Positions 57,269 to 63,490 of a stretch of 64,000 nt of DNA are shown piece by piece (within the stretch, counting starts at the first letter, position 1; each line of letters starts with the position of its first letter). This stretch comes from Petasospora fabianii (lineage: Eukaryota; Ascomycota; Saccharomycetes; Phaffomycetales; Wickerhamomycetaceae). The notes under the pieces are model-generated. The model was not told where the DNA came from. It searched no databases and was given only the letters and a program-made list of their open reading frames with translations. Position numbers and translations under genes: made by a program. The stretch lies in assembly GCA_022641835.1 (NCBI GenBank), contig CP048718.1, positions 434,001-498,000 of the forward strand, read 5' to 3'.

Positions 57269-57780
57269 TCATCTTCGATTATCGTCCCTAGGCGGAGTAG
57301 ACCCTGAGGAGGTATTACCTCTCATGACATACCCTGCTTGTTGTGGTGTATGCATCATGTGTCCTGATAAGTGTTGGATGGCGAGTGGTTGGGGTTGATA
57401 GTGGGAATAGGGTAGTTGATACATCATCATTGGACAAGATGTGTATTGTGGTGGATATATCGGTACTTGGGTATAATGAGGATGATGGAGATGATGCTGT
57501 TGTTGTGGTTGTGGTGGGATATGATTGTGGGAGAGGGAGGGTAGATATATCGGTTGTGACGATGGGAGGGGTATCTGTAGTTGTCGATGTTGGTGTTGGT
57601 CAAAATGGATCGGTTGCATAGATTGTTGATGTTGTGGCCGCATATGATATGCTTGTTGCTGTGGTTGTTGATGATGGTGATGAAGATGAAGACGGGTATG
57701 ATCGTATGGGGTTGATGGTGATGAAGAATGTGAGAAGTCAGTGCGTTGAAGTTTATTTAGATTTCGATTGTGTGGTGATC

Positions 57781-57826
<46 letters not shown>

Positions 57827-58891
57827 GGTGTTTCGTTCATCATCGTCGTCATCGGTATCATGCAAGTCATCAACATCGTCATGTTGACGCTTAGAGCTCG
57901 TTTGTTTCTTTCTGAGTCTGATACGTGCACCTTTCTTATAAAGGAAACTTGTTAAAGGTGAAGATGGGGTTGAACCTGGGAATTTTTTCGGTGTATATAT
58001 CTGAATCTCATCCGAATAAATCTCACTTCTCCAAAAGACATCACCTTTATAAACTTCAAACAGGTCAAACTTCAACTTGAACAAACCAACTTTTCTAACA
58101 GAGAGATCTGGTAAGACAAAGACAATACCATGATTTGATGCCTTACTCTTCTCCTGTGGTAAGAGATGATTTGATTGTTGGTTTGAAGAACTAGTCATTT
58201 TCAACGAAAGTGGCATACCAGATGCCACGTTAGTACCAATGAGTAAATCTTCAACTGCCTTAAGATTATGAGAGTGTGGTAGTAACTTATCACTATTTTC
58301 CTTTGCACTTCGAAGTCTTGCCGTTACGAAGAAAGTTGAATAATGAGCCCATGCAGGGATCCGACATTCTCTCATCTTTTGAATCACTTCAAGCTCTTGA
58401 ATACGTTCTGTACATCTAGCATGTGTTGACTTTATATCGTTAATCAGTTCATCTGTAAGTTGGGACTCGTGCTTCGGTTGGAACCCATCGACACGAAGTT
58501 GAAGAACAGGCGGTGGATGAATCGGTCTATGTTCACTGAAAGGTGGGAAAGCCCTACCGTTGGCCCTAGTGGACACTTTAGCATTCTTGGGTTGTTGAAT
58601 GATCGAGAGGGAGAAAGATGGATTCTTGGGTCTCTTGATGTATCGTTTCTTGTGTTTAGCGATGGCTGGGACTGTACGTGGGACGATATGGTAGATATCG
58701 AGTGGTTGTGTTGTTGCTGTTGATGCTGACGCTAATGCTGATGCTGATGCACATGTTGATGCACATGTTGATGTTGACGTTGATGTTGTTGGAGCATTGG
58801 CTGTGGCCTTAACTGTCGTCGTTGGCACTTGTTCACCGGCCAGTAAAAAGTTGATACTGGACTTATTCGGTGTCGCAGAAGAAGATCCCAT
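57269..58891 (-). CDS. Velvet-domain regulatory protein
   Basis: A 540-residue protein with a velvet domain at about 91-330, the Rel/NF-kB-like DNA-binding fold of VosA, VelB, VeA and VelC. Diagnostic parts: HRPIHPPPVLQLRV (121-134), the core FVLPDLSVRKVGLFKLKFDLFEV (258-280), then KKFPGSTPSSPLTSFLYKKGARIRLRK (302-328). The N-terminal 65 residues are Ala/Ser/Thr-rich. After the domain come an acidic patch (DDVDDLHDTDDDDDE), an Asn15 run and His/Gln/Pro/Tyr-rich sequence, all low complexity. Velvet factors control sporulation and secondary metabolism in filamentous fungi, normally as dimers. Its long upstream region (about 2 kb) suits a regulated gene. Which velvet subfamily it belongs to cannot be told from sequence alone. 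Confidence 0.88.
57781..57826 (+). repeat. TGT/CAA microsatellite coding for Asn run
   Basis: About 15 tandem TGT triplets in the plus strand, encoding the 15-Asn run of the velvet protein. Such tracts vary in length between strains. Confidence 0.9.
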
Positions 58892-60900
58892 GGGGGTGGC
58901 CTGTTTGTAACTTTTCCTAATTATAATTGTAAATGGTAACGTAACACACTGACCTCAAATACGTATTTATCATATGAGCCCGCTCGTTTAGGATATATAT
59001 ATATATTTATATATACTGCAACTGTGCTGGTCAACGCGAGCACAAGCATGCGCGACGGCACAACGCGACACGCGCGGCTGCCCACCGGAAAGAGCAGCCA
59101 GTGGACATATTTGCCCCTCTCTTCAAAATCTCTACTTTTTTTTTTTTTTGCTATTTCTCTCTATATCTATCTCTGTTACCGGTCCTAACGTTATGTAACT
59201 ATGTGCAATGACAAGCACATTTCTCAGCTTTAAAATGTGGTCTTCTGCAATGAGACGCGAGCCGGTAAGTACCAGGCGCGGTAGAGGGTCAACGACTAAA
59301 GAGAAGGATCAAAGTTGAGTAGGTCAGGTTGACAAAGTAGACTATCCCACTAAGGTTCAGACAACAAAGTTTGTGATTAAAATGGCTTCCTTCGTCAGTG
59401 TGGCTCGATCGGATGCCCTTATAGTTCTTATGATCATATGGTTTTTGTAGGTCCGTTGACACCTGCCAGCAAAGCACTATCCAGTACTATAACCCGTCAG
59501 ACCTAGACACGAGCATCAGTGCTCTGCGACCTAGGAGATGGAGCACACATCCAGGGCCTGGCCGACATCCTCTCCCAAGGGAACCCGGTTCTTCGTATCA
59601 AGCACAAATCTGTGCCCCCAGTGTTCTATACCATTCTATGCTCCCCACCCCACAAATACCCCATGATGCCACCATATTGATCTCATGGTAGTAACATCAG
59701 ACCACGGCAAGTAACGCAATAACACAATAGTAATAGTACTAAACTCGGTAATGGTATCAACCGGTCGGGATGGTGTCGTCCCAGCTTTACTAGATTAACG
59801 CATTCAAGACTAAACCGCATTCTCTATGTGCATTTTGCCCAGGTTGATGACGTCGGCAATGCTTGGGAGTCACTCTTCTCGAAGCTTCCGAGTTTTCCAT
59901 CAAGCTTCTGAAGAGGGGCAACGATCCAAAGGGGGGACAAATTGAGATCCGGAATTGTGGCTATTTATCTAGTCAACATCTGGTTGCACGGCGTTGATGA
60001 CGGAACGGTATAGCAGTGATGATAGAAACTATACTGTGGTCCAACACTTATACCTACATTTTTGTAGCATCTCATTTGAACTGTGTAGTGCATCCAGCTG
60101 TAGATATGATACAGATAAGACTCTGTAGTGTTACGAACGATGCCCTTCGTGTTCCATTTGAAGAGTGTGTGCCGTACGTACACCGTTGGTTCAACGATAA
60201 TGTATAATTGGTTGGCGGGTGGTGCTGGATTTTTTTTTCTTTTTTTCCCTTATTCTGCATCCTTAGTTTCCCCTAGCTTATCATTAGGCTCGGTTCAGTG
60301 GTTCAATTTTTCAAAGTATTGATCTGCTCGTGTGCATGAGGGTCCATGTGCCGTCTTCCTTAAGCATCACTACATGACATGTTGAGATACTCTGTGCTTA
60401 ACCCGGAAACGATCCTATGGTCAACCTCTTTGTAATTGACATCATTACACAGTAATCATAATCATGATCTGTTTATATATGGCTTGGACCCTTGGACCCT
60501 TGTAGATATATACACATGTCACTTGATCAATTGAAGACCCTGGTCAAGTCTTAGTAAAGGGTCTCCACTCGTCCATTACATGAGCATGTACCAAAAAGTT
60601 GGCTCCTCAACGACAATCTGTCAAAACTACAATTTACAATACATAAATATACAGTTGCTCAAATAAAACCATCTTGGAATCCAGATCATGTGACTACGGT
60701 ACTTAGTTACTTCGCAAGAGAGACTCCGTTTAGAGCAACCCACAAGTACTAATTCCATCTCATCTGGTTCGCGCACACACACCCAATAGTACCAAGACTT
60801 TTTGTTTGCTCCTAATTGTCTTGAACTCCTTGCCACTTACTGATAACCATTATCTTCAAGTGACAACTAGTGACAACTAGTGACAACCAAAAAAGACATC
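58892..60900. other. Long intergenic region between velvet and RCR-type genes
   Basis: About 2 kb with no supported gene; it contains both promoters. A TA microsatellite (about 58993-59017) and a T15-type run (about 59135-59149) lie near the velvet gene. Three copies of TGACAACTAG (60861-60887) directly precede the RCR-type ATG. Small frames here are not conserved in appearance. Confidence 0.5.
60861..60887 (+). repeat. Triplicated 10-bp repeat before RCR-type gene
   Basis: TGACAACTAG occurs twice in full and a third time as TGACAAC, in tandem, 14 bp before the ATG at 60901. Role unknown; it may be simple slippage in the leader. Confidence 0.8.
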
Positions 60901-61353
60901 ATGCCCTCTCTCAATATTGCTGAAGAACTTGAAAAGAGAAGATACTACTGTAACGCCTATGGCCAGTGTTATAACCGTTCTTCAAGAAGTTATTGGTGGT
61001 TATTCTTCCTCTTCTTCATCCCAGTACTCTTTGTCTTGTTTTGTATGTGTTGTAGAAGAAGAAATCTTAACAGAAGAAATCAAGGAATGCCACCAGTTCC
61101 ATACACTGGATGGACTACATACAATCTTGGAAATCAACAACAACAACAGGGACAGTATCAACAACCATATTATGAGCAAAAGCCAGAAGAAGGATATGGA
61201 TACGCTCCACCTCCTTCTTATGATAACAATGGTCGTACCACTAGTGGAACAGAGTATCAGAGACCAGATGGTCCTCCTCCTGGTTCAAACAATGCTGGTA
61301 ATACCTATTATAACTCCCCACAGGCCCCACAGAATGCTTACACAAGATCTTGA
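60901..61353 (+). CDS. RCR-family membrane protein
   Basis: A 150-residue single-pass membrane protein resembling S. cerevisiae Rcr1/Rcr2 (Congo red resistance, chitin and membrane-protein sorting). Residues 1-32 are luminal, with two Cys (YYCNAYGQCYN). One membrane segment is at about 33-49 (WWLFFLFFIPVLFVLFC), followed by CMCCRRRN, a likely palmitoylation and stop-transfer patch. The cytosolic tail is Gln/Tyr/Pro-rich and holds a PPSY motif (APPPSYD), a PY site for the ubiquitin ligase Rsp5. The open frame runs 7 codons further up from a GTG; I use the ATG. The match is from layout and motifs; overall identity to Rcr1 looks low. Confidence 0.7.
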   Translation: MPSLNIAEELEKRRYYCNAYGQCYNRSSRSYWWLFFLFFIPVLFVLFCMCCRRRNLNRRNQGMPPVPYTGWTTYNLGNQQQQQGQYQQPYYEQKPEEGYGYAPPPSYDNNGRTTSGTEYQRPDGPPPGSNNAGNTYYNSPQAPQNAYTRS

Positions 61354-61489: not shown

Positions 61490-63490
61490 CTAGATAAAAA
61501 TGACATCACCAGTGATGACCCGTCCTGATCTCGTTACACAATCAACTCTGACCCTATCACCCCTCTGTGATACATAACATGGTGTTGTCATTGGTCTCTG
61601 AAACTTTGCATTTTCATACACCAACCACATCAACACGTCATCATCATCATCCCATTGCACAAACACACCTTGATCACAAAGTGTCTTCTTCACCTCTTTG
61701 ACACTTTCGACACTTTGTTGAACATCTTCAGTCTCGATGAGCAAATCACCAATCAATACACTAATACCCTCCTTGGAATAATCATCATCACTCCCTTCCC
61801 TGGCTTCATCAGATCCCACCATAACCCATGAAGAATCACCATCCCCACGTCTCATCATCTCATCAATCTCAGACGTCCATCTAATTGCAACACCACTAAT
61901 TACAAGATATTCCCTCTCCCTCATCTTTGGTAACCCAATTGTCGTTTCTAATCTCTTCCAATGATTCGAACCACCACTTTTCAATGGAACACATAACGTT
62001 CCATCCCTCACGTGTGTAACTGATCTATACCGACGCTCAACGTAGTATTGGATCACCAATTGGAAGAACTCATCTTCCTTCTCATTAACATCATGCTTCG
62101 TTATGTGTCTGAAGCTCACTCCAAGTCTCAATGATGAAGATTCAACATCCTTTTGGAATTGAAATATCTGTGTGATTGAGTCCTTTGAGTCGATACCTGG
62201 AATACGTTTAATCTTCAATGAAGTGCCTCCAATGAATGCATCGCTTGTGATCAACTCCAATGATTCATCGTTCAGATTGGTGGGCAATGACATTTGTAAT
62301 GACCCATTTACCCATTTCTTATTAAAAACGGTCTTTCCTTTGGCTTTAAACAACTGGCCCTCCCCTCGAGAGAAATTAGTATAGAAAGACATTCCACCAT
62401 TCTTGCGTTGAGTAAATGGAGCATTGTAATGTGCAATGTATGTGCCAACGCTACCACCTGGATAAGCATCATTAATCTCTCCAATCCAAAATTTACGATC
62501 TCTCTCTAAGAATTCATCAATAGGATCAAAATTCTCATATGTCCATGCTGGTGCAAATAGGGCAACATTAGATGAGTAAACACGAAGGAAATTTATGGCA
62601 AGTCCCGTATCATAACCACCTTTACCAACTTTGGAACCACGACCCCAAACATCAATACCAACAAACAACTTCTTCTTCACTCCAAGCAAACCAATGTTTA
62701 AAATGTTATTCCTCAAAGTTGATTCATCCCACCAATAATTGGTAAAGAAGATATCAGAGGATTCAAAATGATCATAATTTAACTCATTAACCCCATTTTG
62801 ATAAAACACCCGATTCTTCACTGCCATGAAGGCATCATACCAAATGACAATGCCTCGATCAATTCTTTTCTTAATCTCACTCTTTAACACTTCACAGAAA
62901 AGAACAATCTTCTTAGCATCTTCACTTCTTCTAAAGCTCGTCTCCACATTGATTAACCATCCATCAAATCCATACCTCACCGCCAACTCAACAAGCTTAT
63001 CAACATAAACAAACCCTTGATCACCATCCTCATCTCGACGCATCACAAGTCTCTCCAAATCATCATCGGCCCCATTCCCTTCGAAAATCACCGTACCAAG
63101 ACATGGAATCCCTTGACGATGTAATGAATTGATCCATGATACAGGTGGCATACTGATTCTATAATGTGCAAAATAGATAAAAGTATCAATCAAACTAGGG
63201 AATTGGAGGAAATAGTGTGATCCTGAACCATGTGGGAAGTATCCCAGTGGACACCTATCCTCTCCATCCTGGTATCCACCTTTGAAATCATGGCATACGA
63301 GCACACGGAGTGGTGTCTTAGGTTGATCATTGGTGATGCTTCGTTGTCTTGAAGGGAGTAGTGGCTCATGTGGGTGAAGGAACGCTTCTATGTGGGGTTG
63401 TGGGGTAGTAGAGAGATGTTTATCGAGTTCTGCAAGGCTGGAGAAGTGAATGCTAGTAATTGACTCAGGGGAGAAGGTTGTGCTGGACAT
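61490..63490 (-). CDS. GH85 endo-beta-N-acetylglucosaminidase
   Basis: Cytosolic ENGase of glycoside hydrolase family 85, which cuts the chitobiose core of N-glycans, here probably free glycans or misfolded glycoproteins. It has 666 residues, no signal peptide, and no membrane segment. The TIM barrel shows VCHDFKGGYQDGEDR (about 65-79), GTVIFEG (132-138) and YGFDGWLINVETSF (173-186), with the catalytic pair Asn181 and Glu183 in the N-x-E spacing known from Endo-M. FFTNYWW and FVGIDVWGRGS follow. A C-terminal beta-rich part completes the protein. S. cerevisiae lacks GH85, while some methylotrophic yeasts (Ogataea) have one. Confidence 0.92.
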   Translation of the reverse strand: MSSTTFSPESITSIHFSSLAELDKHLSTTPQPHIEAFLHPHEPLLPSRQRSITNDQPKTPLRVLVCHDFKGGYQDGEDRCPLGYFPHGSGSHYFLQFPSLIDTFIYFAHYRISMPPVSWINSLHRQGIPCLGTVIFEGNGADDDLERLVMRRDEDGDQGFVYVDKLVELAVRYGFDGWLINVETSFRRSEDAKKIVLFCEVLKSEIKKRIDRGIVIWYDAFMAVKNRVFYQNGVNELNYDHFESSDIFFTNYWWDESTLRNNILNIGLLGVKKKLFVGIDVWGRGSKVGKGGYDTGLAINFLRVYSSNVALFAPAWTYENFDPIDEFLERDRKFWIGEINDAYPGGSVGTYIAHYNAPFTQRKNGGMSFYTNFSRGEGQLFKAKGKTVFNKKWVNGSLQMSLPTNLNDESLELITSDAFIGGTSLKIKRIPGIDSKDSITQIFQFQKDVESSSLRLGVSFRHITKHDVNEKEDEFFQLVIQYYVERRYRSVTHVRDGTLCVPLKSGGSNHWKRLETTIGLPKMREREYLVISGVAIRWTSEIDEMMRRGDGDSSWVMVGSDEAREGSDDDYSKEGISVLIGDLLIETEDVQQSVESVKEVKKTLCDQGVFVQWDDDDDVLMWLVYENAKFQRPMTTPCYVSQRGDRVRVDCVTRSGRVITGDVIFI

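What the first reader, a model, noticed from the sequence alone, without database searches (positions are those of the whole stretch)
57269..58891. Velvet-domain protein in a budding yeast
The protein carries all the hallmark segments of a velvet domain (PPPVLQLRV, VFVLPDLSVRKVG, KKFPG...RIRLRK). Velvet factors are described mostly from filamentous fungi, and S. cerevisiae and C. albicans lack them as far as I know. Here it lies in an otherwise ordinary budding-yeast chromosome. Either the family survived in this lineage or it was acquired. Its Asn/His/Gln low-complexity tail and 2-kb promoter suggest a developmental regulator.
Basis: partly seen in the sequence, partly recalled or inferred. 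Interest (0 to 1): 0.8.

Follow-up and report, generated by a model that had tools for sequence, protein, structure and literature searches.

The report
Remodelled velvet regulator in budding yeasts
This is a genuine velvet-family gene regulator kept by a budding yeast and some of its relatives; the family's presence in some budding yeasts was already reported, but this branch carries an altered DNA-contact loop and a conserved short tag at its start.

Summary

Beyond the finding: the orthologs form one fast-evolving clade whose deeper place is unsettled, leaning to VeA. In 15 of 15 rows two arginines essential in A. nidulans VelB are Lys/His and the DNA-contact loop is longer, while dimerization residues are kept. 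A KSSIxFLL motif lies near the start of 16 of 17 proteins. No LaeA was recognised. Best reading: one half of a VelB heterodimer with changed DNA contact, perhaps a repressor. Function is inferred, not shown.

The parts
57269..58891 (-). velvet-domain gene, 540 aa, single exon
58841..58864 (-). aa 10-17 KSSINFLL, conserved N-terminal motif K[SN][SN][IL]x[FY][LI][LI]
   Evidence: present in 16 of 17 clade proteins, missing only in the truncated model P0002; 0 of 130 other fetched proteins (most of them VelB) have it in their first 60 aa
57905..58615 (-). Velvet domain, aa 93-329
58508..58597 (-). DNA-binding region aa 99-128 with longer loop; VelB R71/R80/R81 equivalents are K/H/R
   Evidence: 15 of 15 clade rows K,H,R; 37 of 37 other rows have R at 71 and at 80. 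Loop length median 24 against 17
58340..58453 (-). aa 147-184, predicted helices in the variable region of the domain
   Evidence: helices at model residues 68-77, 82-97, 101-105 (aa = residue + 79) in the AlphaFold2 model
57953..58237 (-). dimerization region, from G219 (= VelB G240) to L313 (= VelB L331)
   Evidence: both residues kept in 15 of 15 clade rows; importance from PMC12077163
57272..57874 (-). Asp-, Asn-, His- and Gln-rich tail, aa 340-540; poly-Asn run of 15 at 57782-57826, 11 in P0002
57652..57948 (-). 297-nt stretch absent from the deposited C. fabianii protein P0001 (BON22_1166), as if a GT-AG intron; probably a wrong call, since it removes the conserved end of the velvet domain
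58892..60879 (.). 1988-bp divergent intergenic region shared with an RCR-type gene

Best explanation
A vertically retained, fast-evolving velvet transcription factor, most likely in the VeA position of the family, that pairs through its dimerization region with the VelB encoded elsewhere in the same genome. VelB keeps the canonical arginine cluster for DNA contact. This partner contributes a longer, altered contact loop (Lys/His in place of two Arg that are essential in A. nidulans VelB, net charge about kept) and so shifts or narrows which sites the dimer binds. Its conserved N-terminal KSSIxFLL motif recruits a cofactor, plausibly the Tup1 corepressor. Shown: velvet domain and predicted fold, one clade, residues, motif, VelB in the genome. 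Inferred: VeA position, dimer with VelB, changed DNA contact, cofactor recruitment, role in filamentous growth or sporulation.
For: Domain and fold. Two velvet genes in the genome, the other a VelB. Of 6 named species with this protein, 5 also showed a VelB: C. fabianii, W. ciferrii, W. pijperi, S. crataegensis, A. rubescens; W. anomalus did not among the 120 VelB hits listed of 572. One clade of 15 rows, 100/100; VelB 28 rows, 99/99. The best tree joins the clade to VeA plus Lipomyces rows (VeA alone where Lipomyces was dropped) in each of six trees (four in 63, 64). Residues. N-terminal motif; its K..I..LL spacing also occurs in the Tup1-binding N-terminal domain of alpha2, MNKIPIKDLL (PMC10163088 passages). 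In A. nidulans VeA is the preferred VelB partner (PMC12614781 section 10).
Against: No interaction, binding or expression data. Support for the VeA join is weak: 53/52, SH-aLRT 6, 99, 79, 87 in quick trees, 88/84 without six fast rows. AU tests reject no rival: with all rows VeA 0.168, Lipomyces 0.264, VosA plus basidiomycetes 0.256, VosA 0.298, VelB 0.491, and the tree with VelB was 0.01 log units better than the free search had found. No VelC and only one VosA row was available. The alpha2 likeness is four spaced residues and may be chance; a genome pattern for the motif was too loose to help. The shared promoter has no exact copy of the VosA site that I recalled.
Confidence: 0.6

Rival explanations
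1. An ordinary VeA ortholog that works as in Aspergillus, bridging VelB and a LaeA methyltransferase to control development and secondary metabolism.
For: Best trees lean to VeA; length 540 aa is near the Pezizomycotina VeA mean of 554 (PMC10845976); VelB is present.
Against: No LaeA recognised: of 13 Methyltransf_23 matches in the genome, the 12 that I read look like other known enzymes (names recalled), one was not read, and a DNA pattern for a recalled LaeA motif gave 0 hits. The DNA-contact loop departs from VeA in 15 of 15 rows.
Confidence: 0.15
2. A velvet protein that has given up direct DNA contact and acts only as a dimer partner that holds VelB and brings a cofactor.
For: R71 and R80, essential in A. 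nidulans VelB (PMC13389560), are Lys and His in 15 of 15 rows; C73 and G74 are lost in 15 of 15. Dimerization residues are kept.
Against: Loop net charge is about unchanged (median +3 in both groups), and K71, E79, H80 and R81 are themselves invariant in 15 of 15 rows, which suggests kept use rather than decay.
Confidence: 0.2
3. Gene acquired from a filamentous fungus, or assembly contamination.
For: Most Saccharomycotina genomes lack velvet genes (PMC10845976). Nine of the 15 clade rows are unnamed, so their hosts are not known.
Against: Same gene in two deposited C. fabianii records; flanked by a Nipped-B/SCC2-type gene and other ordinary genes with similar GC (0.428 against 0.449 for the window); the six named species with it are all budding yeasts; no filamentous-fungus row falls inside the clade.
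Confidence: 0.03

Closest known systems
VeA (A. nidulans; Sac-VeA clade of Chen et al. 2024)
   Same: Velvet domain, long low-complexity C-terminal tail, length, VelB in the same genome; best trees lean here
   Different: Altered DNA-contact loop and N-terminal KSSIxFLL motif; no LaeA recognised. Its variable region has predicted helices; these were not compared with VeA residue by residue
VosA (PDB 4n6q)
   Different: Not placed with VosA in the best trees, though not rejected; VosA keeps R71 and R80
VelB
   Same: Velvet domain; dimerization residues G240 and L331 kept
   Different: Lies outside the VelB group (28 rows, 99/99), and the genome has its own VelB
NF-kB/Rel and NFAT domains
   Different: 13-18% identity; a fold likeness, not membership

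Membership tests
Velvet family (PF11754) | profile score above the curated cut-off over the whole domain | tested here: met
   107 bits against 25, profile 1-236 of 237
Velvet family (PF11754) | velvet beta-sandwich fold | tested here: met
Velvet family (PF11754) | dimerization residues equivalent to VelB G240 and L331 | tested here: met
   kept in 15 of 15 clade rows
Velvet family (PF11754) | arginines at VelB 71, 80, 81 (typical, 84-91% of 4,999 domains per PMC13389560; not defining) | tested here: not met
   K, H, R in 15 of 15 clade rows
VeA subfamily | forms a clade with VeA | tested here: inconclusive
   joined to VeA plus Lipomyces in six trees; careful trees 53/52 and 88/84, quick trees SH-aLRT 6 to 99; rivals not rejected
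VeA subfamily | works with LaeA in the velvet complex | tested here: inconclusive
   no LaeA recognised in the genome by family search and pattern; interaction not testable here
VelB subfamily | falls in the VelB clade | tested here: not met
   VelB group of 28 rows 99/99 without it; a sister position to VelB is not rejected
VosA subfamily | forms a clade with VosA | tested here: inconclusive
   AU p 0.298 and 0.304, one VosA row only
VelC subfamily | forms a clade with VelC | not tested
   no VelC reference was available
Tup1-recruiting repressors | motif that binds Tup1 WD40 repeats | not testable with these tools
   spacing likeness to alpha2 N-terminus only

The most novel reading that the evidence does not exclude
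In Phaffomycetales and Ascoideales the VeA partner was rebuilt, after LaeA was lost, into a corepressor-recruiting velvet subunit with its own DNA specificity: an N-terminal Tup1-type motif joins the NF-kB-like velvet system to the yeast Tup1-Cyc8 repression machinery and controls the yeast-to-filament switch.
Probability: 0.2. Interest if true: 0.65.

Novelty: new variant of a known kind. Interest (0 to 1): 0.4.

Why it matters
Budding yeasts are often described as lacking the velvet system. A two-gene set of VelB plus a VeA-like protein without a recognised LaeA, in a species that makes true hyphae, is a compact natural system for asking what velvet dimers do without LaeA. The clade-wide Lys/His change at two arginines that are essential in A. 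nidulans VelB is a natural test of how velvet proteins read DNA. It also contradicts a statement in a 2026 review (PMC13006574) and points to two gene models in public records that look damaged.

Tried and rejected
Species identification by 5.8S rRNA: RF00002 gave no match in the genome; the species rests on protein identity instead.

The first protein search scored only the 7981 candidates sharing most words, probably because of the low-complexity tail. Repeating it on aa 86-335 added Saccharomycopsis and Ascoidea and dropped the Lipomyces and mushroom hits.

LaeA: Methyltransf_23 in the own genome gave 13 matches; 12 had loci and were read. By recalled names they look like Coq3, a cyclopropane/sphingolipid methyltransferase, Trm140, Bta1, Erg6, Abd1, two Tmt1-like, Trm9, Efm4, Bud23 and Hmt1; these names were not checked by a family search. 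One match had no locus and was not read.

Genome-wide DNA pattern for the N-terminal motif: 61 matches against 24 for the reversed control, too loose to use. Of the 61, 30 had loci and were scanned: four loose in-frame matches lay in ORFs of 100 codons or more, two of them short; I did not identify those ORFs. The window's own site was a match but was not among the 30 loci.

Velvet or stress sites in the shared promoter: no exact VosA-like site; other short patterns at counts not tested against chance. The site strings are recalled.

Tree choices: P0015 and P0023 were left out because they lack the N-terminal part; P0001 and P0002 because their models are damaged; P0018 and most of the 120 listed VelB-search proteins were not used. 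CfVelB and P0027 have identical domains. Six of the 19 yeast-side VelB rows and nine of the 15 window-type rows are unnamed proteins.

Papers opened in passages but not used in the argument: PMC3419727, PMC1310626.

Rejected: contamination, chance similarity, and transfer (see rivals).

Full report

Where it is from. The genome has 12.34 Mb in 16 contigs. The closest proteins are two C. fabianii models, P0001 (BON22_1166) and P0002 (CYFA0S18e00320g1_1). The VelB of this genome is 99% identical to a C. fabianii protein. The taxonomy now lists C. fabianii as Petasospora fabianii, Phaffomycetales. Because two deposited records hold the gene, contamination is unlikely. I take them to be strains 65 and YJS4271 from two genome announcements (PMC5383881, PMC4125763; search listing only); the link of locus tag to strain is recalled.

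Public gene models. P0001 lacks aa 315-413 of the window ORF. In the window the missing part starts with GT and ends with AG, 297 nt, and it holds the end of the domain (SFLYKKGARIRLRK) whose counterpart is present in the other clade proteins. I read this as a wrong intron. P0002 lacks aa 2-136, DNA-binding region included; I found no clean splice explanation.

Partner. A search of the own genome with PF11754 finds two genes, this one and one on contig 6 (208 bits), whose 307-aa product matches VelB in the PDB at 3.3e-43. The window protein was found under a name in C. fabianii, W. anomalus, W. ciferrii, W. pijperi, S. crataegensis and A. rubescens. VelB was found under a name in five of these six; for W. 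anomalus no named VelB was among the 120 listed of 572. Lineages were looked up for C. fabianii, W. pijperi (Phaffomycetales), S. crataegensis and A. rubescens (Ascoideales); those of W. anomalus and W. ciferrii are recalled. Nine of the 15 clade rows are unnamed.

Trees. With 52 rows and 216 columns the 15 window-type rows form one clade at 100/100 on a very long stem (3.41), and 28 VelB rows form a group at 99/99. Within it 19 rows on the Saccharomycotina side (13 named, 6 unnamed; 100/99) sit beside six Pezizomycotina rows, with five Lipomyces-like genera apart from the other 14. This is broadly what retention predicts. It is not perfect: Babjeviella, of another class, joins Ascoidea at 91/61, and the two Ascoideales VelB rows do not group; these are long branches. 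The deeper place of the window clade is not settled: the best tree joins it to VeA plus Lipomyces rows with 53/52, and AU tests reject none of VeA alone (0.168), Lipomyces (0.264), VosA (0.298), VosA plus basidiomycetes (0.256) or VelB (0.491), the last tree being 0.01 log units better than the free search had found. In four quick re-runs the VeA plus Lipomyces join stayed, with SH-aLRT 6 (stricter columns), 99 (six fast rows out), 79 (no VosA) and 87 (no Lipomyces rows, so VeA alone). A careful tree without the six fast rows gives 88/84 and again rejects nothing (p 0.304 to 0.386). The lean to VeA fits the Sac-VeA clade that PMC10845976 reports, but its Figure 8 could not be seen, so I do not know whether these proteins are in it.

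What is different. Aligned to A. nidulans VelB, the positions of R71, R80 and R81 are K, H, R in 15 of 15 clade rows; in the 37 other rows R71 and R80 are R in 37 of 37, and R81 in 36 of 37 (VosA has K). PMC13389560 (abstract and sections 33, 36, 37) reports these three as essential in VelB and as R in 85, 91 and 84% of 4,999 domains. The loop is longer (median 24 against 17) but keeps its net charge (median +3 in both), and the new residues are themselves invariant, so I read remodelling rather than decay. The dimerization residues G240 and L331 (PMC12077163, abstract, part 1 of results and section 8) are kept in 15 of 15. The model shows three helices in the variable region; that region is 80-108 residues long here and 47-209 in the other rows, so its length is not unusual.

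N-terminal motif. K[SN][SN][IL]x[FY][LI][LI] starts at aa 3-10 in 15 proteins and at aa 37 in P0010, whose model may start too early; only the truncated P0002 lacks it (16 of 17). The linker from it to the domain varies from 17 to 148 residues, so the motif seems constrained on its own. None of 130 other fetched proteins has it in the first 60 aa, but most of those are VelB, so this says little about VeA proteins at large. Its K..I..LL spacing is shared with the first residues of alpha2, whose N-terminal domain binds Tup1 (PMC10163088, passages). This is a lead only.

LaeA. None recognised (limits under Tried and rejected). PMC13006574 (passages) states that velvet proteins and LaeA are absent from Saccharomycotina yeasts. 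The velvet half of that does not hold here, in line with PMC10845976 (passages and sections 6, 10, 20), which found velvet genes in part of the Saccharomycotina genomes, and with 12 velvet genes reported in S. fibuligera (PMC5106798, passages).

Biology. C. fabianii isolates from bread made abundant pseudohyphae and true hyphae (PMC11311480, passages); the same passages describe hypha-like growth or pseudohyphae in S. fibuligera and W. anomalus. A link to the velvet pair is inference. The listed rows of four literature searches (30 of 34, 30 of 334, 25 of 1,027 and 15 of 800 papers) showed by title no paper on the function of velvet genes in these yeasts; most subscription papers are not held.

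Verdict. Real, correctly named, of a kind already known to occur in some budding yeasts, and most likely inherited. The part worth follow-up is the remodelled contact loop and the N-terminal motif in a protein whose genome also encodes VelB.

Noticed in passing
61490-63490 (-): Glycosyl hydrolase family 85 gene (280 bits; endo-beta-N-acetylglucosaminidase type by recall), next but one to the velvet gene.
   Followed up: partly
60901-61353 (+): RCR-type (Congo red resistance, chitin) gene, divergent from the velvet gene across the 1988-bp gap.
   Followed up: partly
57782-57826 (-): Poly-Asn codon run whose length differs between records: 15 Asn in the window, 11 in P0002.
   Followed up: partly
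L001:1489-2412 (-), G000:C6, about 17 kb from the contig end: The VelB gene lies close to a contig end, perhaps subtelomeric, and its DNA-binding region has PPV where most rows have PPP.
   Followed up: no
L006:1102-3450 (+): A long protein that looks like a Bta1-type betaine-lipid synthase (name recalled) in this yeast genome.
   Followed up: no
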